Source: Vibrio tarriae
Lineage (GTDB): Bacteria; Pseudomonadota; Gammaproteobacteria; Enterobacterales; Vibrionaceae
Assembly (NCBI RefSeq): GCF_002216685.1
Contig: NZ_CP022353.1
Location: 992,001 to 1,056,000 of the forward strand
Length of the DNA stretch: 64,000 nucleotides
Direction of reading: 5' to 3'
In this document: one piece after another, positions 18,065 to 26,422 of the stretch
Layout: every line of letters starts with the position of its first letter
Position numbering within the stretch: the first letter of the stretch is position 1
Notes under the pieces: generated by a model
The model's input: only the letters and a program-made list of their open reading frames with translations
Databases searched by the model: none
What the model was told of the DNA's origin: nothing
Translations under genes and position numbers: made by a program

Positions 18065-18694
18065 ATGAAGCTCAGTGAACAAAAACGGTTGGCGCTGATT
18101 GAAGCAGCAAAAGAAGAGTTTACCCAGTTTGGATTCCATGCAGCGAATATGGATCGCGTTTGTGAACGCGCAGGTACCTCAAAACGCACCTTGTATCGCC
18201 ACTTTACCAGTAAAGAGTTGCTCTTTATTGAAGTGATCAATCTTCTGGTGGCACAGCCGCACAAGGTTGGTTTTGAGTATCAATCTACCCGTTCTCTTGC
18301 GGATCAGTTGCACGACTACTTTGCGGCAAAAATTGACCTACTGTATCGAACGATTGGCCTTGATGTGCTGCGGATGATTGTGGGGGAATTTGTGCGCGAT
18401 CCAGCCTTAACGCAGCAATATCTCACGTTGATGGGGACTCAAGATACGGCGCTGACTGCGTGGCTGCAAGCTGCCATTAAGGATGGAAAACTGATTGAGA
18501 AAGATGTAGCTCCCATGGCGACAACCTTGATGAATCTCTTTCATGGTCAGTTTTTATGGCCGCAGTTGCTGGCCGCGGTGGAGCTGCCTGATGCCAAACA
18601 GCAGCAAATCATGATGGATGAAATCATTCGTGTGTTTGTGCTGAGCTACGGTGTATCCTCTCCAAGTCATTTGAGTATAGAACTAAAGCCTTAG
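18065..18694 (+). CDS. breR: TetR-family repressor BreR (bile response)
   Basis: A 209-residue TetR protein. The helix-turn-helix spans about residues 10-55 (FTQFGFHAANMDRVCERAGT then SKRTLYRHF). The C-terminal part resembles the AcrR/TetR_C ligand domain. In V. cholerae the TetR gene next to the gabD-type gene is BreR, which represses breAB and its own gene and is relieved by bile salts. The near-identical palindromes at 12385-12407 and 17990-18012 support this identity. gabD follows 32 bases downstream on the same strand, so it may be co-transcribed. Confidence 0.8.
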   Translation: MKLSEQKRLALIEAAKEEFTQFGFHAANMDRVCERAGTSKRTLYRHFTSKELLFIEVINLLVAQPHKVGFEYQSTRSLADQLHDYFAAKIDLLYRTIGLDVLRMIVGEFVRDPALTQQYLTLMGTQDTALTAWLQAAIKDGKLIEKDVAPMATTLMNLFHGQFLWPQLLAAVELPDAKQQQIMMDEIIRVFVLSYGVSSPSHLSIELKP

Positions 18695-18726
18695 AGGCTA
18701 ACGGATCACTGATGAGGAGTCTTGCC

Positions 18727-20178
18727 ATGTTACCGACCGATTTTCCATTTTTTCACCAAAGCGCCTTTATTAATGGGCAGTGGATTTTAGGTGAGCCACA
18801 GGCAAGGCAAACGGTAACCAATCCGTTTGATGGCTCCCTCATTGGCTCTGTTCCTTTATTGAGTGTGGCTCAGGTGCAAGACGCGATTGCAGGTGCGCAG
18901 GCGGCGCAAATCTTATGGCGCCAGCAACCCGCTGAAAATAAAGCCAAAATTTTGCGCCGTTGGTATGAGCTTATTGAACAGCATCATGCATCATTGGCGA
19001 AGTTATTAACCATTGAACAAGGTAAACCGCTGGCTGAAGCCCAAGGGGAAATTCACTACGCCGCGAGCTTTGTGGAATGGTACGCTGAAGAAGCCAAACG
19101 CGCTTATGGTGAGCTGATCCCATCCCATAAACCTGATGCGCGAATTATGGTTTCGCGCCAGCCTGTTGGCGTTGTTGCCGCGATTACGCCTTGGAATTTC
19201 CCCGCCGCCATGATTACCCGTAAATGTGCTCCTGCCTTTGCAGCCGGTTGCGCCGTGGTGTTAAAACCAGCGCCGGATACGCCGTTCACTGCTTTAGCTT
19301 TGGCCGATCTCGCGCAACAAGCGGGAATTCCAGATGGTTTATTGCAAGTGGTGACTGGCGATGCGATTGAAATCGGGCGTGTACTGACGGAAAGCAAAAC
19401 GGTACGCAAACTCTCATTTACTGGCTCAACCGGGGTTGGCAAGCTTTTGATGGCACAATCAGCCAATAGCGTGAAAAAACTCTCGCTTGAGCTGGGAGGA
19501 AATGCGCCGTTTATTGTGTTCGAGGATGCGGATATTAATGCCGCGATTGATGGTGTGATGGTGGCGAAATTTCGTAATGCTGGACAAACTTGCGTGTGCG
19601 CTAACCGGATTTATGTGCATGACGCGGTATACGATCAATTTGCTGCCAAGTTGGTGGATCGGGTCAGCAGGCTCAACGTCGGTTATGGTTTGGATGCCGG
19701 TGTAAACATTGGCCCGCTGATCAATGATGCCGCGGTTGCTAAAGTCACATCACATATAGTGGATGCCCAAAGCAAAGGAGCGAAAGTGATGTTTGGTGAG
19801 CTGCCTGAAGCGGGCAGCCGTTTATTCCAGCCACACGTGTTAACCGAAGTGACCGATGAAATGCGCGTTGCTGACGAAGAAACCTTCGGCCCCTTGGCCG
19901 CTCTGTTTCGTTTTAGTTCTGAGCAAGAAGTGATCGAGCGAGCCAATGCGACCGATTCGGGTTTGGCCGCTTATTGTTATACCCAATCTTTGCGCCGGGC
20001 ATGGCACATGAGTGAAGCACTCGAAGCGGGGATTGTCGGCATCAACGAAGGGTTGATTTCCACCACGTTAGCGCCTTTTGGTGGCATCAAAGAGTCGGGC
20101 CTTGGTAGAGAAGGGGCGAAACACGGCCTTGAAGAGTACCTTGAAGTCAAATATACCCTTATGGGTGGACTAGCTTAG
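18727..20178 (+). CDS. gabD: NAD(P)-dependent succinate-semialdehyde dehydrogenase
   Basis: A 483-residue aldehyde dehydrogenase, matching E. coli GabD (482). Catalytic residues are Glu255 in LELGG and Cys289 in GQTCVCANR. The cofactor loop FTGST is at 231-235 and PWNFP is at 155-159. GabD oxidises succinate semialdehyde to succinate in GABA breakdown. The start at 18727 is preferred because GAGGAG lies seven bases upstream; an in-frame ATG at 18712 would place that site inside the gene. No gabT is present nearby, so the physiological substrate could also be another semialdehyde. Confidence 0.87.
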   Translation: MLPTDFPFFHQSAFINGQWILGEPQARQTVTNPFDGSLIGSVPLLSVAQVQDAIAGAQAAQILWRQQPAENKAKILRRWYELIEQHHASLAKLLTIEQGKPLAEAQGEIHYAASFVEWYAEEAKRAYGELIPSHKPDARIMVSRQPVGVVAAITPWNFPAAMITRKCAPAFAAGCAVVLKPAPDTPFTALALADLAQQAGIPDGLLQVVTGDAIEIGRVLTESKTVRKLSFTGSTGVGKLLMAQSANSVKKLSLELGGNAPFIVFEDADINAAIDGVMVAKFRNAGQTCVCANRIYVHDAVYDQFAAKLVDRVSRLNVGYGLDAGVNIGPLINDAAVAKVTSHIVDAQSKGAKVMFGELPEAGSRLFQPHVLTEVTDEMRVADEETFGPLAALFRFSSEQEVIERANATDSGLAAYCYTQSLRRAWHMSEALEAGIVGINEGLISTTLAPFGGIKESGLGREGAKHGLEEYLEVKYTLMGGLA

Positions 20179-20462: not shown

Positions 20463-20502
20463 TATACCCAAACTACCTGCAGCTTCAAGTAGCAAGGGTA
20501 TA
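20463..20502. repeat. ERIC-like mini-palindrome forming the 3' end of a gene
   Basis: Both ERIC termini (TATACCC and GGGTATA) survive with the middle lost, leaving a 40-base hairpin-like remnant that includes CTGCAGCTTCAAGTAG. The right half encodes the last residues YTLAT and the TGA stop of the minus-strand PLP-enzyme gene. Confidence 0.75.
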
Positions 20503-21396
20503 TTCGCTAAACTGCCGCTGATAACGCGGCAACATACTTTCATTTCCCAGTAAACCGCCTTGGTGTAGATAAAGCAAGTTTCGGTCTGGGTTCTCGGTAC
20601 GCCAAGCTGACAATAAACGCCACATCAGCGGGTCGTATAACAGATCAAATTCAATATGAGTTTGTGCCAGTAACGCTTGCCATATCTGATAATCTTCTTG
20701 ATAAAGATGACCGAAATAGTGCTTAGTCGTAGAGGTCAGAACCGTCGGGTGAGAGGTTTCACCGAGCATTAAAAACTGCTCACGTAAGTAGGATTCGTCA
20801 CCCACACAAGGGCAGGTAATGACTTCAACACCGTGTGGTTGCAAATATTTGTGTAAGTAGAGCGCCGTGGTTCCGGTGCCGGAAGGCAGGGCAACCACCC
20901 AATCTGGCTGGATTTGGTGGCGGATCCATTCGAGCATTTCTAACGCCAACTGTTTGATCCCCGGCTCAGCAAAGGGGCTGCGCGCACCTTCCTCAATCAC
21001 CAAGCAATCGGTATTGGGCATGCGTTGTTGCTGAATAAATTCTCGTGGATGCTTAGCCCCTAGTGAGCGCGTTTCAATAATGGTCGCTCCCAATTCCAGC
21101 GCACCACGGTAGTTACCGATTGGATAACTTTTCAGCCACGCGGGAATATGGTCAACGTAAAACTCCAAGCGCCAACCGCGCAGTTTAGCGAGGGCTGCAA
21201 AAGAGTAGAGCGAGTTAGCTTGTGCCGAACCATAGCTGATTAAGGTGGTGATGCCGGGAAAATCCCCTTCAAGCAACGCCATCAATTTGCGGGCTTTGTT
21301 ACCACTGAAATGTGGATGAAGCTTGTCATCCCGTTTGAGGTAAAAGGTTTGCCCTGCAAAACGGTGTTCAGTGATAGGTGATTGAGTGATCAGCAT
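20485..21396 (-). CDS. PLP-dependent ACC deaminase / D-cysteine desulfhydrase-like enzyme
   Basis: A 303-residue fold-type II PLP enzyme. The cofactor lysine is Lys34 in FSGNKARK, and GTGTTALYLH near 180 contributes the phosphate-binding loop. The family includes ACC deaminase and D-cysteine desulfhydrase, and sequence alone does not fix the substrate. I place the start at the ATG at 21396 rather than at 21510. A TATAAT box on the minus strand at 21427-21432 would put transcription start near 21420, downstream of the longer start. The C-terminal five residues and the stop come from an ERIC remnant. Confidence 0.75.
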   Translation of the reverse strand: MLITQSPITEHRFAGQTFYLKRDDKLHPHFSGNKARKLMALLEGDFPGITTLISYGSAQANSLYSFAALAKLRGWRLEFYVDHIPAWLKSYPIGNYRGALELGATIIETRSLGAKHPREFIQQQRMPNTDCLVIEEGARSPFAEPGIKQLALEMLEWIRHQIQPDWVVALPSGTGTTALYLHKYLQPHGVEVITCPCVGDESYLREQFLMLGETSHPTVLTSTTKHYFGHLYQEDYQIWQALLAQTHIEFDLLYDPLMWRLLSAWRTENPDRNLLYLHQGGLLGNESMLPRYQRQFSEYTLAT

Positions 21397-21426
21397 AAGA
21401 AAATCGAGCTCTGAATGGGGTCGCAC

Positions 21427-21432
21427 ATTATA
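21427..21432 (-). promoter_or_regulatory. -10 box for the PLP-enzyme gene
   Basis: A perfect TATAAT on the minus strand, about 30 bases before the chosen ATG at 21396. The -35 region is weak. It decides between the two possible starts of the gene. Confidence 0.5.
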
Positions 21433-21586
21433 CGCAGTTAGATAGCCACGACTAGGGTTTGGATCAAACGCTCTCCGAGTGACCACCCTTATGACTGGCG
21501 GCCTAACCACTTATCGCCGTGCTCTAAGTCCTGAATTTTTGACTGAAAAATCGCCGATTAACCGACTTGAGCAAAATAAACCAGAT

Positions 21587-21726
21587 AAAAAAACGCCCAA
21601 AACAATCTGGTTTTGGGCGTACACAAGTATAGGAGTTAATAAAAAGGAAAAAGCAGCGTAATTGGTGACAGCGGGTCGAGAACCAAATTTGACGGCCAGT
21701 AAAACTCTCAAAGCTCTGTCAATCAC
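21587..21726 (-). ncRNA. vrrA: VrrA, sigma-E-dependent small RNA
   Basis: A 140-base minus-strand RNA gene with no open reading frame of note. The predicted 5' end GTGATTGACAGAGC lies seven bases after a sigma-E -10 box. The 3' end is an intrinsic terminator: ACGCCCAAAAC pairs with GTTTTGGGCGT and a run of seven T residues follows. Length, position between the PLP-enzyme gene and the TetR-fadE pair, and sigma-E promoter all fit VrrA of V. cholerae. VrrA is an Hfq-associated sRNA that represses outer-membrane protein mRNAs such as ompA and ompT and increases vesicle release. The assignment is from memory of the locus plus the promoter and terminator seen here. Confidence 0.88.
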
Positions 21727-21732
21727 GTCTAT

Positions 21733-21760
21733 TCAGACTGGGCGTTTGGCAAAGAGTTCC
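21733..21760 (-). promoter_or_regulatory. sigma-E promoter of vrrA
   Basis: On the minus strand the -35 box is GGAACT (21755-21760) and the -10 box is TCTGA (21733-21737), separated by 17 bases. Both match the envelope-stress sigma factor RpoE consensus (GGAACTT, TCTGA). The spacing predicts initiation at about 21726. Confidence 0.85.
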
Positions 21761-21828
21761 AAAAGTTCGCAAATTATTTTTAAATTTTTTGTGGAAGAAT
21801 TTTCATCGTGCTGCAAGCACTTAGCTGC

Positions 21829-21843
21829 ATCTGGTCAGACCAT
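21829..21843. promoter_or_regulatory. FadR-type operator upstream of the TetR-fadE pair
   Basis: ATCTGGTCAGACCAT contains the perfect palindrome TGGTC-A-GACCA, the core of the FadR consensus (CTGGTCNGACCAG). FadR is a GntR-family fatty-acid regulator that represses beta-oxidation genes until acyl-CoA binds. The site is 85 bases before the TetR start and about 780 bases before fadE, which would be the regulated target. Confidence 0.75.
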
Positions 21844-21898
21844 GGCGAGAAAATGTGATGTTAATCGCTTGTTAATTAAATGTGGCGAGAGTATATTT

Positions 21899-21912
21899 CA
21901 AACAGTTGTTTG
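21899..21912. promoter_or_regulatory. PsrA-type palindrome directly before the TetR gene
   Basis: CAAAC-AGTT-GTTTG is an exact inverted repeat that fits the published PsrA pattern (C/G)AAAC-N2-4-GTTT(G/C). It ends 15 bases before the ATG of a TetR gene that precedes fadE. Autoregulation by that protein is the natural reading (inference). Confidence 0.65.
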
Positions 21913-21927
21913 ATACGAGTGATTGAA

Positions 21928-22554
21928 ATGGCATTACGCAGTAGTACTAAGGAAAAAATATTGGATGTAGCAGAAGGGCTGTTTGCGGAATACGGCTTCA
22001 ATGATACCTCTTTGCGCACGATCACCAGTAAAGCGGGTGTGAATCTTGCGTCGGTCAACTACCATTTTGGTGACAAAAAAACCTTAGTTCGAGCGGTACT
22101 CAATCGTTATCTCGAAGCTTTCATGCCGGAGATGAAACAGTCGCTTGAGCGGCTTAACGAGCGGGACGATTACGATATGGCTGAAGTTTTTGAAGCGCTA
22201 CGTGCTCCCTTGCGTTCGTTAAGCGAATTGCGCCCCAATGGCACCAGCCGTTTTATGCTGCTGATTGGCCGAGGTTATACCGATGTGCAGGGCCATCTCC
22301 GTTGGTTTATTACCAATCGCTACAATGATGTGCTAACCCTATTTACCGATTCCGTGCTTAAGGCAAACCCCAACTTGACTCGCGAAACCTTGTTTTGGCG
22401 GTTGCATTTCACCTTAGGTACTTGCGTCTTTACCATGGCGTCGAGTCAAGCGTTAGCAGAGATTGCAGAAAATGATTTTGGAAGCAAAGTTGATCCTAAG
22501 TCTGTGGTCGATCAACTGATTCCATACCTCGCGGCCGGTGTGGCGGCGAAATAA
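21928..22554 (+). CDS. TetR-family regulator, PsrA-like, upstream of fadE
   Basis: A 208-residue TetR protein with the DNA-binding region at residues 5-52 (AEGLFAEYGFNDTSLRTITS then AGVNLASVNYHFGDKKTL). The region FWRLHFTLGTCVFTMASS near 165 belongs to the ligand domain. Residues around the recognition helix and the neighbouring fadE resemble PsrA, which senses long-chain fatty acids in Pseudomonas and Shewanella. I chose ATG 21928 (MALRSSTKEK) instead of 21880, because the longer form would place the operator palindrome inside the coding region. fadE starts 55 bases after the stop. Confidence 0.8.
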   Translation: MALRSSTKEKILDVAEGLFAEYGFNDTSLRTITSKAGVNLASVNYHFGDKKTLVRAVLNRYLEAFMPEMKQSLERLNERDDYDMAEVFEALRAPLRSLSELRPNGTSRFMLLIGRGYTDVQGHLRWFITNRYNDVLTLFTDSVLKANPNLTRETLFWRLHFTLGTCVFTMASSQALAEIAENDFGSKVDPKSVVDQLIPYLAAGVAAK

Positions 22555-22609
22555 CTAACCGATTCATAACAAAAATAACAGTGTAACCAGTGAACAAAAG
22601 GATCTGAAT

Positions 22610-24892
22610 ATGAGCTCTCTACGCAGAAAATGGATCAGCGACCCCGCTTTCAAAATGTTTAAGAAAGTGCTTCCTCCTCTGTCACAAACCGAGAAAGAAG
22701 CGATGGAAGCGGGCAGTGTATGGTGGGATGGTGAACTGTTCTCTGGTAAGCCTGATTTCACCAAGCTGCACCATTATCCGAAACCGACCTTGTCAGCGGA
22801 GGAGCAATCTTTCATCGACAACGAGTTGGAAACTCTGCTCGCTATGTTGGATGACTACAAGATAGTCAAACAAGATCGCGATCTCCCCAAAGAGGTGTGG
22901 GACTACCTACGTAAAGAGCGTTTCTTCTCGCTGATTATTTCCAAAGAGTATGGTGGCCGTGAGTTCTCGGCTTTGGCGAACTCGACCATAGTGTCACGCA
23001 TTGCTACGCGCAGTATCAGCACCGCAGTGACGGTCATGGTACCGAACTCATTGGGCCCTGGTGAGCTCTTGTCACACTACGGCACCCAAGAGCAGAAAGA
23101 TTACTGGCTGCCACGTTTGGCCGATGGCACCGATATTCCTTGCTTTGCATTGACAGGGCCGGAAGCGGGTTCGGATGCCGGCAGCATTCCTGACCAAGGC
23201 GTGGTCTGCTACGGCAAGCATGAAGGCAAAGACGTGCTGGGCATCCGTTTAAGCTGGAACAAGCGTTACATCACGCTGGCACCGGTGGCGACTGTGCTGG
23301 GTCTTGCTTTCAAACTGAGTGACCCAGAGCATCTGCTTGGCGATAAAGAAGAGATTGGTATTACTTGTGCGCTGATCCCTGCCTCCCATGAAGGCGTAGA
23401 GATTGGCGAACGCCATGACCCACTAGGTTTGGCCTTTATGAACGGCCCAACCCGTGGTCAAGATGTGTTTATCCCAATGGATTGGCTGATTGGTGGGGCG
23501 GATTACGCAGGTAAAGGCTGGCGCATGTTGGTGGAGTGTCTCTCGGCAGGACGTGGGATCTCCCTACCTGCATTGGGTACCGCGATTGGCCACCTCACCG
23601 CTCGCACCACAGGCGCATATGGCTATGTGCGTAAGCAGTTTGGGATGTCGATTGGTAAATTTGAAGGTGTGGCGGAAGCCATGGGACGTATCGGCGGTTT
23701 AACCTACTTGCTGGAAGCGACCCGTACTTTGACTACCACCTCTTTGGATCTCAAAGAGAAACCGGGGATTGTCACGGCGATTGCCAAATACCACATGACG
23801 GAAATCGCGCGCACCATTTTGAATGATGCGATGGATATCCATTCTGGTCGTGCTATCCAAGACGGACCAATGAACTATCTGGCGACGCACTATCTCGGCG
23901 TACCCGTGGCAATCACGGTTGAAGGGGCGAACATTTTGACGCGTAACCTGATGATCTTCGGTCAAGGTGCGACTCGTTGCCATCCTTATGTTCTCAAAGA
24001 GATGGAAGCGGCGGCCAACCCAGATCAACAAGAAGGGGCGAAAGCGTTTGATGAACTGCTGTTCAAGCACATTGCCCACGCGACCAAAAACAGCTTTGGT
24101 GCTCTGTTTGCTGCACTGACGGGTTCACGCTTTATTAAAGCGAATATGAGTGGCCCCACACAAGACTACTATAAGCAGATGACTCGCTTGAGCCGCGCTT
24201 TAGCGGTGAGTGCGGATGTGGCAATGCTCACCTTGGGTGGCGAGCTCAAACGTAAAGAGATGATTTCAGCACGCTTAGGCGATGCACTGAGCTATCTGTA
24301 CATGGGCTCGGCGGTACTGAAAAAGTATGAAGATGAAGGCCGCCACCAAGCGGATTTAGACTACGTACACTATGCGATGCAGTACTGTTTGCATCACGCG
24401 GCGAAATCGCTTAACCAAGCGTATCGTAACTACCCTGTGACTGGAGTCGGAGCCATCTTGAAAGGGCTGCTGTTCCCGCTAGGCAACCACTTTGCACCAC
24501 CGAGTGATGAGTTAGCGGTCAAACTCGCAGAAAGTCTGATGACCCCAGGAGCGCATCGTGATCGTTTAACCGCGCTGTGCTACATAGGTAAAGGTGAAGA
24601 TGACAGCGTAGGCTTGATGGAAAAAGCGTTTTTGGCCATGTACAGCGTTAAAGGCTTAGAGCGTAAACTGCAACAAGGGGTGAAAGAGGGCAAAGTGGCG
24701 CGTAAAGGACTACTGGTTGATCGCCTAGCACAAGCAGAGCAAGCGGGTGTGCTGAGCGCAGATGAAGTGGCTTCGATTCTGGCGGCAGAAAAACTGCGTA
24801 GCCGTGCGATTCAGGTCGATCATTTCAGCCATGATTTCTCGCAAATCCATACCCATCAGACCACCAAACCTAAGTTAAACAGTGTGGCGTAA
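22610..24892 (+). CDS. fadE: acyl-CoA dehydrogenase FadE
   Basis: A 760-residue FAD-dependent acyl-CoA dehydrogenase, the first oxidative step of beta-oxidation. It is shorter than E. coli FadE (814) because it lacks the hydrophobic N-terminal extension; the N terminus here begins MSSLRRKWISDP. The ACD core is visible (CFALTGPEAGSDAGSIPD near 180, SWNKRYITLAP near 217, and the glutamate-containing VEGANILTRNLMIFGQG near 430). The FadE-specific C-terminal domain covers ~500-740. A good ribosome site (AAGGA) lies seven bases upstream. It is probably co-transcribed with the TetR gene and controlled by the FadR-type and PsrA-type sites. Confidence 0.9.
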   Translation: MSSLRRKWISDPAFKMFKKVLPPLSQTEKEAMEAGSVWWDGELFSGKPDFTKLHHYPKPTLSAEEQSFIDNELETLLAMLDDYKIVKQDRDLPKEVWDYLRKERFFSLIISKEYGGREFSALANSTIVSRIATRSISTAVTVMVPNSLGPGELLSHYGTQEQKDYWLPRLADGTDIPCFALTGPEAGSDAGSIPDQGVVCYGKHEGKDVLGIRLSWNKRYITLAPVATVLGLAFKLSDPEHLLGDKEEIGITCALIPASHEGVEIGERHDPLGLAFMNGPTRGQDVFIPMDWLIGGADYAGKGWRMLVECLSAGRGISLPALGTAIGHLTARTTGAYGYVRKQFGMSIGKFEGVAEAMGRIGGLTYLLEATRTLTTTSLDLKEKPGIVTAIAKYHMTEIARTILNDAMDIHSGRAIQDGPMNYLATHYLGVPVAITVEGANILTRNLMIFGQGATRCHPYVLKEMEAAANPDQQEGAKAFDELLFKHIAHATKNSFGALFAALTGSRFIKANMSGPTQDYYKQMTRLSRALAVSADVAMLTLGGELKRKEMISARLGDALSYLYMGSAVLKKYEDEGRHQADLDYVHYAMQYCLHHAAKSLNQAYRNYPVTGVGAILKGLLFPLGNHFAPPSDELAVKLAESLMTPGAHRDRLTALCYIGKGEDDSVGLMEKAFLAMYSVKGLERKLQQGVKEGKVARKGLLVDRLAQAEQAGVLSADEVASILAAEKLRSRAIQVDHFSHDFSQIHTHQTTKPKLNSVA

Positions 24893-25216: not shown

Positions 25217-26422
25217 ATGATCATCAAACCTAAAATTCGTGGATTTATCTGTACAACAACGCACCCAGTGGGTTGTGAAGCGAACGTAAAAGAACAAATT
25301 GCCTACACAAAAGCACAAGGTCCGATCAAAAACGCACCTAAGCGCGTGTTGGTTGTCGGATCGTCTAGCGGCTATGGTCTGTCATCACGCATCGCTGCGG
25401 CGTTTGGCGGCGGTGCGGCGACGATCGGCGTATTTTTCGAAAAGCCGGGCACTGACAAAAAACCAGGTACCGCGGGTTTCTACAATGCAGCAGCGTTTGA
25501 CAAGCTAGCGCACGAAGCGGGCTTGTACGCAAAAAGCCTGAACGGCGATGCGTTCTCGAACGAAGCGAAGCAAAAAGCGATTGAGCTGATTAAGCAAGAC
25601 CTCGGCCAGATTGATTTGGTGGTTTACTCATTGGCTTCTCCAGTGCGTAAGATGCCAGAAACGGGTGAGCTAGTGCGCTCTGCACTGAAACCGATTGGCG
25701 AAACGTACACTTCTACGGCGGTAGATACCAATAAAGATGTGATCATCGAAGCCAGTGTTGAACCTGCGACCGAGCAAGAAATCGCTGACACTGTCACTGT
25801 GATGGGCGGCCAAGATTGGGAACTGTGGATCCAAGCGCTGGAAGAGGCGGGTGTGCTTGCTGAAGGTTGCAAAACCGTGGCGTACAGCTACATCGGTACT
25901 GAATTGACTTGGCCAATCTACTGGGATGGCGCTCTAGGCCGTGCCAAGATGGACCTAGATCGCGCAGCGACAGCGCTGAACGAAAAGCTGGCAGCGAAAG
26001 GCGGTACCGCGAACGTTGCAGTTTTGAAATCAGTGGTGACTCAAGCAAGCTCTGCGATTCCTGTGATGCCGCTCTACATCGCGATGGTGTTCAAGAAGAT
26101 GCGTGAACAGGGCGTGCATGAAGGCTGTATGGAGCAGATCTACCGCATGTTCAGTCAACGTCTGTACAAAGAAGATGGTTCAGCGCCGGAAGTGGATGAT
26201 CACAATCGTCTGCGTTTGGATGACTGGGAACTGCGTGATGACATTCAGCAGCACTGTCGTGATCTGTGGCCACAAATCACCACAGAGAACCTGCGTGAGC
26301 TGACCGATTACGACATGTACAAAGAAGAGTTCATCAAGCTGTTTGGCTTTGGCATTGAAGGCATTGATTACGATGCTGACGTCAATCCAGAAGTCGAATT
26401 TGATGTGATTGATATCGAGTAA
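25217..26422 (+). CDS. fabV: FabV-type trans-2-enoyl-ACP reductase
   Basis: A 401-residue NADH-dependent enoyl-ACP reductase for the last step of fatty-acid elongation. It has the FabV active pair Tyr235 and Lys244 in a Y-x8-K spacing ([10 protein letters not shown]), longer than the six-residue spacing of FabI. The cofactor motif is [15 protein letters not shown] (47-61). FabV was first described in V. cholerae and is insensitive to triclosan. I use the ATG at 25217, six bases after AAGGAAG; a TTG at 25211 is a weaker alternative. It lies directly after fadE, so synthesis and degradation genes are neighbours separated by an ERIC element. Confidence 0.93.

What the first reader, a model, noticed from the sequence alone, without database searches (positions are those of the whole stretch)
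21829..21912. Two fatty-acid regulator sites stacked in front of the TetR-fadE pair
A perfect FadR core palindrome (TGGTC-A-GACCA) and, 56 bases downstream, a perfect CAAAC-AGTT-GTTTG palindrome fitting the PsrA pattern lie before a TetR gene that precedes fadE. PsrA-type control is known in Pseudomonas and Shewanella, FadR in Enterobacteria and Vibrio. Having both on one operon would make beta-oxidation answer to two acyl-CoA sensors, with possible feed-forward through the TetR gene.
Basis: partly seen in the sequence, partly recalled or inferred. Interest (0 to 1): 0.7.

Follow-up and report, generated by a model that had tools for sequence, protein, structure and literature searches.

The report
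Doubly controlled Vibrio fatty-acid promoter
In front of a gene pair for burning fatty acids, many Vibrio bacteria carry docking sites for two different fatty-acid sensors at a fixed distance; both look real and selected, and they extend a known kind of control rather than reveal a new one.

Summary
TGGTC-A-GACCA (21832-21842) and CAAACA-GT-TGTTTG (21899-21912) lie 56 bases apart before a TetR gene (start 21928) followed by fadE. The TetR protein is Vibrio PsrA by NCBIfam (361 bits, cut-off 300), so the second site is most simply its own operator. Of 81 Vibrio loci (window included) all have the PsrA-type palindrome within two mismatches and 72 the FadR type within one; the latter needs five changes on the tree. 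In 16 of 16 sampled genomes of other genera psrA, fadE and the PsrA site are together, with no FadR site at this place. Seven Vibrio genomes without psrA that keep this fadE have no exact PsrA-type site in 1.5 kb upstream. A conserved TTGTTA-17-TATATT puts PsrA on the predicted start point and FadR about 67 bases upstream; three TGTT-like repeats in 11-base steps resemble an ArcA box. fadB and a fadH-like gene carry both operators in the opposite order. 'Two sensors on one operon' is supported; 'two acyl-CoA sensors' is doubtful, since PsrA is reported to answer to fatty acids. FadR control of V. cholerae fadE, and the name PsrA for VC1741, are in print. Binding and start point were not tested.

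The parts
21829..21845 (.). FadR-type operator, core TGGTC-A-GACCA 21832-21842, centre 21837
   Evidence: in 67 non-redundant promoters 21831-21842 carry 1.0-1.6 bits except the centre (0.11); the 24 bases before (21806-21829) mostly under 0.35 bit (21811-21812 about 0.7); two bases after (21843-21844) 0.9-1.0; 69 exact + 3 one-mismatch + 9 absent of 81
21854..21858 (+). nearly invariant TGTGA, CRP half-site-like; meaning open
   Evidence: 79 of 81 loci; the other half (TCACA expected) is not conserved
21859..21884 (+). three direct repeats TGTT / TGTT / TGT at 21859, 21870, 21881, 11-base steps: ArcA-box-like
   Evidence: 79, 80 and 64 of 81 loci; the third is TGTT in only 34 of 81 and TGTG in the window; 11-bp centre-to-centre repeats are the ArcA architecture (PMC3798270, passages)
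21869..21874 (+). predicted -35 TTGTTA
   Evidence: only promoter-like hit of the scan, 9 of 12, spacer 17; shuffles give 1.5 hits, so the scan alone is not significant; TTGTT in 80 of 81
21892..21897 (+). predicted -10 TATATT; start point inferred near 21904
   Evidence: in 81 of 81 loci, which were aligned on this motif
21898..21913 (.). PsrA-type operator TCAAACA-GT-TGTTTGA over the predicted start point
   Evidence: within 2 mismatches in 81 of 81 loci; in 16 of 16 sampled genomes of other genera, 12 exact and 4 with one mismatch to AAACANNYGTTT; no exact match in 1,500 bases upstream of this fadE in 7 of 7 genomes without psrA
21928..22554 (+). psrA, TetR-family repressor, 208 aa
   Evidence: NCBIfam NF053516 361 bits over cut-off 300; PDB 2fbq 1.8e-45; TetR_N + TetR_C_30
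22610..24892 (+). fadE, acyl-CoA dehydrogenase, 760 aa
   Evidence: NF009586 1331 bits over cut-off 608; ACDH_C 368 bits; 55 bases after psrA, no terminator-like site found in 21650-22620

Best explanation
This is the promoter of an autoregulated psrA-fadE operon. PsrA, made from the first gene, binds the palindrome over the start point and blocks its own operon until long-chain fatty acid releases it. FadR, free of long-chain acyl-CoA, binds about 67 bases upstream of the start and is a second, distal repressor, probably by occupying the DNA where RNA polymerase or an activator would bind just above the -35. The operon therefore opens fully only when both the fatty acid and its CoA ester are present. 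Three 11-base TGTT-like repeats across the -35 probably let ArcA shut it when oxygen is low. fadB and a fadH-like gene use the same two operators in the opposite order, with FadR by the start point and PsrA upstream. Shown by sequence: sites, spacing, conservation, gene identities, co-absence with psrA. Inferred: binding, start point, direction of FadR's effect, ArcA, ligands.
For: PsrA identity: 361 bits over the Vibrio PsrA equivalog cut-off; the DNA-binding helices align closely with 2fbq (recalled to be P. aeruginosa PsrA), and the published motif G/CAAAC(N2-4)GTTTG/C (PMC10304680, passage) fits the site. PsrA operator in 81 of 81 Vibrio loci and 16 of 16 other-genus loci. Co-absence: 7 of 7 genomes without psrA that keep this fadE have no exact match in 1,500 bases upstream and none within one mismatch in the nearest 500. 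FadR site: 69 exact and 3 one-mismatch of 81, arms conserved and centre free, same distance in 67 of 69. fadR over the family cut-off in 13 of 13 genomes searched; the own FadR has 275 residues aligned to 235 model positions, so about 40 extra, as described for Vibrio FadR (PMC5733061, introduction read). Pair pattern in 109 of 194 genomes of the genus (my count of rows; reversed control 1 match in 296 genomes). PsrA-then-FadR pattern, any promoter: 110 of 196 genomes of the genus, controls 0; 24 of 46 genomes outside it, control 1; genes behind 49 of these and's matches were compared with the own genes.
Against: No binding or expression was measured. The start point is predicted; the promoter scan alone does not beat shuffles (1 found, 1.5 expected). 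A FadR site near -67 is not where E. coli fad operators sit, which overlap the start (PMC9329746, passage), so the sign of its effect is open. 9 of 81 loci lack the FadR site. Single-genome counts of the FadR core do not exceed the control. In the psrA-less genomes the sites are not cleanly absent at one mismatch: three have a distant PsrA-type match with one mismatch, one has an exact and three have one-mismatch FadR-type matches, all at other distances. The published FadR repression of V. cholerae fadE might concern the other fadE paralogue, whose FadR site lies just after its predicted -10. The ArcA box rests on repeat geometry only; its middle repeat overlaps the -35, which could explain part of the conservation, and the third repeat is weak. 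The 3' flank ACCAAT (A and T each in 49 of 67) resembles a PdhR site (recalled motif).
Confidence: 0.65

Rival explanations
1. FadR acts here as an activator from its upstream place: without fatty acid it raises psrA, and PsrA then holds down fadB, the fadH-like gene and fadD. Fatty acid removes both, giving a coherent feed-forward loop through the TetR gene.
For: The site is upstream of the conserved promoter, whereas at fadB and the second fadE the FadR site lies at the predicted start point. FadR activates fabA and fabB in E. coli (PMC5733061, introduction read).
Against: psrA and fadE look like one operon; activation would also raise fadE, and the review PMC9438474 (passages) says FadR lowers V. 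cholerae fadE, without saying in those passages which of two paralogues.
Confidence: 0.17
2. The upstream palindrome is read by another GntR-family protein with the same geometry, such as PdhR, and not by FadR.
For: TGGT-NNN-ACCA is shared with the PdhR motif (recalled); one of the 4 exact cores in this genome lies before pdhR (442 bits over cut-off 330) inside ATTGGTCTGACCAAT; the 3' flank is mostly ACCAAT in relatives.
Against: The positions next to the centre are conserved as C and G (1.2-1.3 bits) and the 5' flank as C (1.04 bits), which is FadR-like: the published consensus is aaCTGGTCnGACC(T/A)Gtt (PMC9329746, passage). The same element pairs with PsrA at fadB and the fadH-like gene.
Confidence: 0.08
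3. The FadR palindrome is a chance or decaying relic without function; only PsrA autoregulation matters.
For: Exact cores are no more frequent genome-wide than in the reversed control; 9 of 81 loci lack it.
Against: The bases before it are mostly under 0.35 bit while the arms reach 1.0-1.6 and the centre is free; a perfect odd 11-base palindrome is there in 48 of 81 loci against a mean of 0.3% at other places, highest 13.6%.
Confidence: 0.07

Closest known systems
PsrA autoregulation (P. aeruginosa PsrA; Stenotrophomonas Smlt2053 and Xanthomonas XAC2014 operons)
   Same: TetR repressor with the same motif in its own operator; Smlt2053 and XAC2014 are in operons with beta-oxidation genes and their sites have a very similar position relative to +1 (PMC10304680, passages)
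   Different: Here the partner gene is fadE and a FadR-type operator is added upstream
FadR regulon of Vibrio (V. alginolyticus and V. cholerae FadR; RegPrecise)
   Same: Same kind of palindrome; binding of vc2105, fadBA and fabA by Vibrio FadR shown by EMSA and/or SPR (PMC5733061, introduction read); FadR lowers V. cholerae fadE (PMC9438474, passages)
   Different: The words fadE, psrA, VC1740 and VC1741 do not occur in the text of PMC5733061; no PsrA site is mentioned in what I read
Shewanella FadR/PsrA network
   Same: Both regulators present; PsrA controls fatty acid degradation, FadR keeps fadIJ and fadL (PMC3223726 and PMC5343134, passages)
   Different: There the FadR regulon is described as contracted; here both operators stand at fadB, a fadH-like gene and, only in this genus in my sample, psrA-fadE
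ArcA boxes of E. coli fad promoters
   Same: 11-bp repeats, three to five common; fadE among repressed targets (PMC3798270, passages)
   Different: Here only inferred; the Table 1 passages seen of PMC1805755 list fadIJ, fadBA, fadD and fadL with ArcA sites in Vibrionaceae, and fadE or psrA was not in the passages shown

Membership tests
PsrA (Vibrio equivalog NF053516) | whole-protein score over the curated cut-off | tested here: met
   361.4 bits, cut-off 300
PsrA | motif G/CAAAC(N2-4)GTTTG/C in its own promoter | tested here: met
   CAAAC-AGTT-GTTTG at 21899-21912; motif as quoted in PMC10304680
PsrA | operator absent where the regulator gene is absent | tested here: met
   7 of 7 genomes that lack a strong psrA hit and keep this fadE: no exact match in 1,500 bases; three have a distant one-mismatch match. 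I gave 16 of the 19 genus genomes without a strong psrA hit; 15 of 16 had a fadE hit, 7 of this type
PsrA | release from DNA by long-chain fatty acid | not testable with these tools
   needs a binding assay
FadR operator | palindrome with CTGGTCnGACC core | tested here: met
   window ATCTGGTCAGACCATGG; consensus quoted in PMC9329746
FadR operator | genome encodes FadR | tested here: met
   391.9 bits over cut-off 249.2 at C2:849465-850289
FadR operator (E. coli fad repressor type) | overlaps the transcription start | tested here: not met
   about 67 bases upstream of the predicted start; the start itself is unmapped
FadR operator | bound by FadR | not testable with these tools
   needs EMSA or footprint
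ArcA box | direct repeats with 11-bp centre-to-centre step | tested here: met
   TGTT at 21859 and 21870 in 79 and 80 of 81; TGT at 21881 in 64 of 81
ArcA box | score with the published 18-bp weight matrix | not tested
   matrix not at hand
CRP site | TGTGA-N6-TCACA (recalled consensus) | tested here: not met
   first half in 79 of 81, second half not conserved

The most novel reading that the evidence does not exclude
Vibrio runs beta-oxidation as a two-key lock: at each of three promoters one fatty-acid sensor sits on the start point and the other upstream, and the order is reversed at the regulator's own operon. Dual control of fadB and the fadH-like gene is old in the family, while FadR's grip on psrA-fadE was added in the Vibrio lineage, turning two parallel repressors into a linked circuit in which FadR sets the level of its partner. 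Together with the FarS RNA and ArcA this gives fadE up to four inputs.
Probability: 0.4. Interest if true: 0.5.

Novelty: new variant of a known kind. Interest (0 to 1): 0.4.

Why it matters
E. coli gates fatty-acid burning mainly with FadR, Pseudomonas with PsrA. A genus that keeps both at fixed places on three promoters allows a direct test of why: an AND gate on free fatty acid and its CoA ester, a brake through PsrA, or insurance. It also warns that 'FadR represses fadE' in Vibrio may mix two fadE paralogues with different promoter layouts.

Tried and rejected
CRP site at about -42: the TGTGA half is nearly invariant but the other half is not conserved; left open. A second promoter upstream with FadR over its start: I saw no conserved hexamer pair there in the profile. 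Genome-wide lists as proof: the FadR core alone is about at its control, so I relied on conservation. The other three exact FadR cores: fadH-like promoter, pdhR promoter, and a coding stretch. PsrA-pattern matches inside coding stretches (C1:692314, C1:828950, C2:631404, C2:2267595, C2:2615019) were treated as chance, untested. Structure prediction was not used; it would not bear on the sites. In the family pair search the two matches outside the genus were fadB promoters read on the other strand and are not counted as psrA-type; one extra match in G130 was not followed. The exact double-site pattern misses variants: of the 4 comparison genomes that keep the site at psrA, 3 matched. Gene names: FadD, malate synthase A, PdhR, FadR and the E. 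coli-type second FadE reached NCBIfam cut-offs; FadB was best-matched by the FadB model but, cut at the locus end, stayed under its cut-off (810 of 933 bits); 'fadH-like' is my reading of an OYE-type reductase (best model a FadH/OYE family one, under cut-off; Oxidored_FMN). Kazakov et al. 2009 (recalled as the key comparative paper), Huber et al. 2020 and two more FadR papers are not held, so whether the exact psrA-fadE double site is already listed there could not be checked. Searches of the held library made for this: (16 listed 25 of 97 papers, 72 listed 12 of 39).

Full report
What is there. The window lies in a 4.12 Mb, two-contig genome whose psrA product is 98% identical to that of Vibrio mimicus. 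At 21832-21842 stands TGGTCAGACCA and at 21899-21912 CAAACAGTTGTTTG, 56 bases apart. They precede a 208-residue TetR protein starting at 21928, then fadE at 22610-24892 and, further on, fabV at 25217. The TetR protein scores 361 bits against the NCBI model for the Vibrio repressor PsrA, cut-off 300; its best solved relative is 2fbq at 1.8e-45, which I recall to be P. aeruginosa PsrA. So the second palindrome is most simply PsrA's own operator.

More than chance? In the window, the FadR core is unlikely by chance (0.03 expected), the PsrA pattern less so (0.16 expected). Across the genome the bare patterns are not decisive: 4 FadR cores against 3 in the reversed control, and 9 PsrA-type matches per strand against 3 and 4. 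Conservation settles it. I took the 80 loci kept of 175 psrA relatives plus the window. TGGTNNRACCA occurs 69 times in 26,730 positions, 67 at exactly this distance from TATATT and two one base off. Three more loci have it with one mismatch and nine lack it, with no match within one mismatch in 320 bases upstream. In 67 non-redundant promoters positions 21831-21842 carry 1.0-1.6 bits except the centre (0.11), and the 24 bases before are mostly under 0.35. The PsrA-type palindrome is present within two mismatches in 81 of 81, with fadE downstream in 81 of 81.

Anatomy. The only promoter-like pair the scan found in 21650-22620 is TTGTTA-17-TATATT (such a hit alone is not significant, but TTGTT is in 80 and TATATT in 81 of 81 loci). 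It places the start near 21904, inside the PsrA palindrome, and the FadR centre at about -67. Between them TGTT recurs at 21859 and 21870 and TGT at 21881 in 79, 80 and 64 of 81 loci. Repeats in 11-base steps, often three or more, are the ArcA architecture, and ArcA represses fadE and other fad genes in E. coli (PMC3798270, passages). A TGTGA just before is almost invariant, but the other half of a CRP site is not conserved.

History. In 16 of 16 genomes sampled from other genera (of 102 such genomes in the set, by my count of rows; 9 genera) psrA and fadE are neighbours and the PsrA palindrome is there, 12 exact and 4 with one mismatch. None has a FadR palindrome at this place; two one-mismatch matches lie at other distances, in L217 and L224. 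One of the 16 psrA copies has an internal stop. The strict pair pattern occurs in 109 of 194 genomes of the genus by my count, and the two matches outside the genus are fadB promoters on the other strand. So, in this sample, FadR's site at psrA-fadE belongs to the genus. Its absence in 9 loci needs five changes on the PsrA tree, four of them forced by well-supported branches. Eight of the nine were searched for fadR (L078 was not held) and 8 of 8 keep it. In V. anguillarum and V. ordalii the double site survives at the fadH-like gene, and in V. anguillarum at fadB; in the other six no exact double site was found, but the pattern also missed one of four comparison genomes. The PsrA assignment has a natural test. 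Of 16 genus genomes without a strong psrA hit (of 19), 7 keep this type of fadE, 8 have only the other type and 1 had no hit. All 7 lack psrA next to it and an exact PsrA palindrome in the 1,500 bases upstream; three have a distant one-mismatch match. FadR-type matches there are one exact at -1011 (L237) and one-mismatch ones in L238, L240 and L242, none at the psrA-promoter layout.

Network. The same genome has both operators before a fadH-like gene (C2:730530 and 730569) and fadB (C2:2785804 and 2785864), and a PsrA-type site alone before fadD and malate synthase A. The pattern PsrA-then-FadR occurs in 110 of 196 genomes of the genus with no match of the reversed control and in 24 of 46 genomes given from other genera, 7 of 12 genera, control 1. 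Of 30 such loci that I examined, 18 were fadB, 10 fadH-like and 2 a metallo-beta-lactamase-superfamily gene; 19 further loci, 7 from Vibrio and 12 from other genera, were 7 fadB and 12 fadH-like. At fadB a TTGA..-17-CA(A/C)ACT pair is found in 15 of 19, with FadR beginning 8 or 9 bases after it. There FadR is by the start and PsrA upstream, the reverse of psrA-fadE. The second fadE (C2:498801-501011, 51% identical; E. coli-type, 1528 bits over cut-off 1300) has a FadR site just after a TACACT hexamer and no PsrA site within one mismatch.

How it probably works. PsrA over the start point represses its own operon; FadR adds repression from upstream; release needs fatty acid for PsrA and acyl-CoA for FadR. 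The ligands come from the literature: FadR, acyl-CoA (PMC5733061, introduction read); PsrA, long-chain fatty acid (PMC10304680, passages). If FadR lowers psrA, and both lower fadB, the circuit is an incoherent feed-forward loop in which PsrA becomes a brake on induction. This is inference. An activating FadR is the main rival, since E. coli fad operators overlap the start (PMC9329746, passage).

What is known. FadR lowers V. cholerae fadE and raises fabB, with the FarS RNA closing a mixed loop (PMC9438474, passages; the primary paper is not held). VC1741 is named PsrA in a 2020 paper that I saw only as a reference entry and in one citing sentence. That VC1741-VC1740 is the psrA-fadE pair of this window is from memory. 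FadR and PsrA regulons were compared across Proteobacteria (PMC5343134, passages). One paper of the held library has the words PsrA, FadR, Vibrio and fadE together, an E. coli review. I therefore rate this a new variant of a known kind, with the caution that Kazakov 2009, which I could not read, may list it.

Noticed in passing
window 18065-20178: A second TetR regulator with an AefR-like C-terminal domain just before a succinate-semialdehyde-dehydrogenase-type gene (673 bits over cut-off 646); the pair looks like another self-regulated unit.
   Followed up: partly
L189 and L190 (G202:C2:238794, G265:C2:615396): In two other Vibrio genomes a PsrA-then-FadR double site stands before a metallo-beta-lactamase-superfamily gene (PF00753); a possible extra member of the dual regulon.
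   Followed up: partly
G000:C2:2067876 (L107): A perfect TAAACAAGTGTTTA lies upstream of malate synthase A (670 bits over cut-off 594), suggesting PsrA control of the glyoxylate shunt, as described for Shewanella.
   Followed up: partly
19 genus genomes, e.g. G151, G153, G174, G193: Some Vibrio lack a strong psrA hit; of 16 searched, 8 have only the E. coli-like type of fadE, 7 the psrA-linked type and 1 no hit.
   Followed up: partly
window 21801-21813: A weakly conserved TTTC...TTA upstream of the FadR site (up to 0.9 bit) has no explanation.
   Followed up: no
psrA promoter of V. cholerae (literature): ChIP-seq reportedly finds the response regulator CarR at the vc1741 promoter (PMC9178039, passages): a possible further input.
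   Followed up: no
window 20485-21510: The reverse-strand ORF upstream looks like a pyridoxal-phosphate enzyme to me but gave no Pfam match at 0.001.
   Followed up: no
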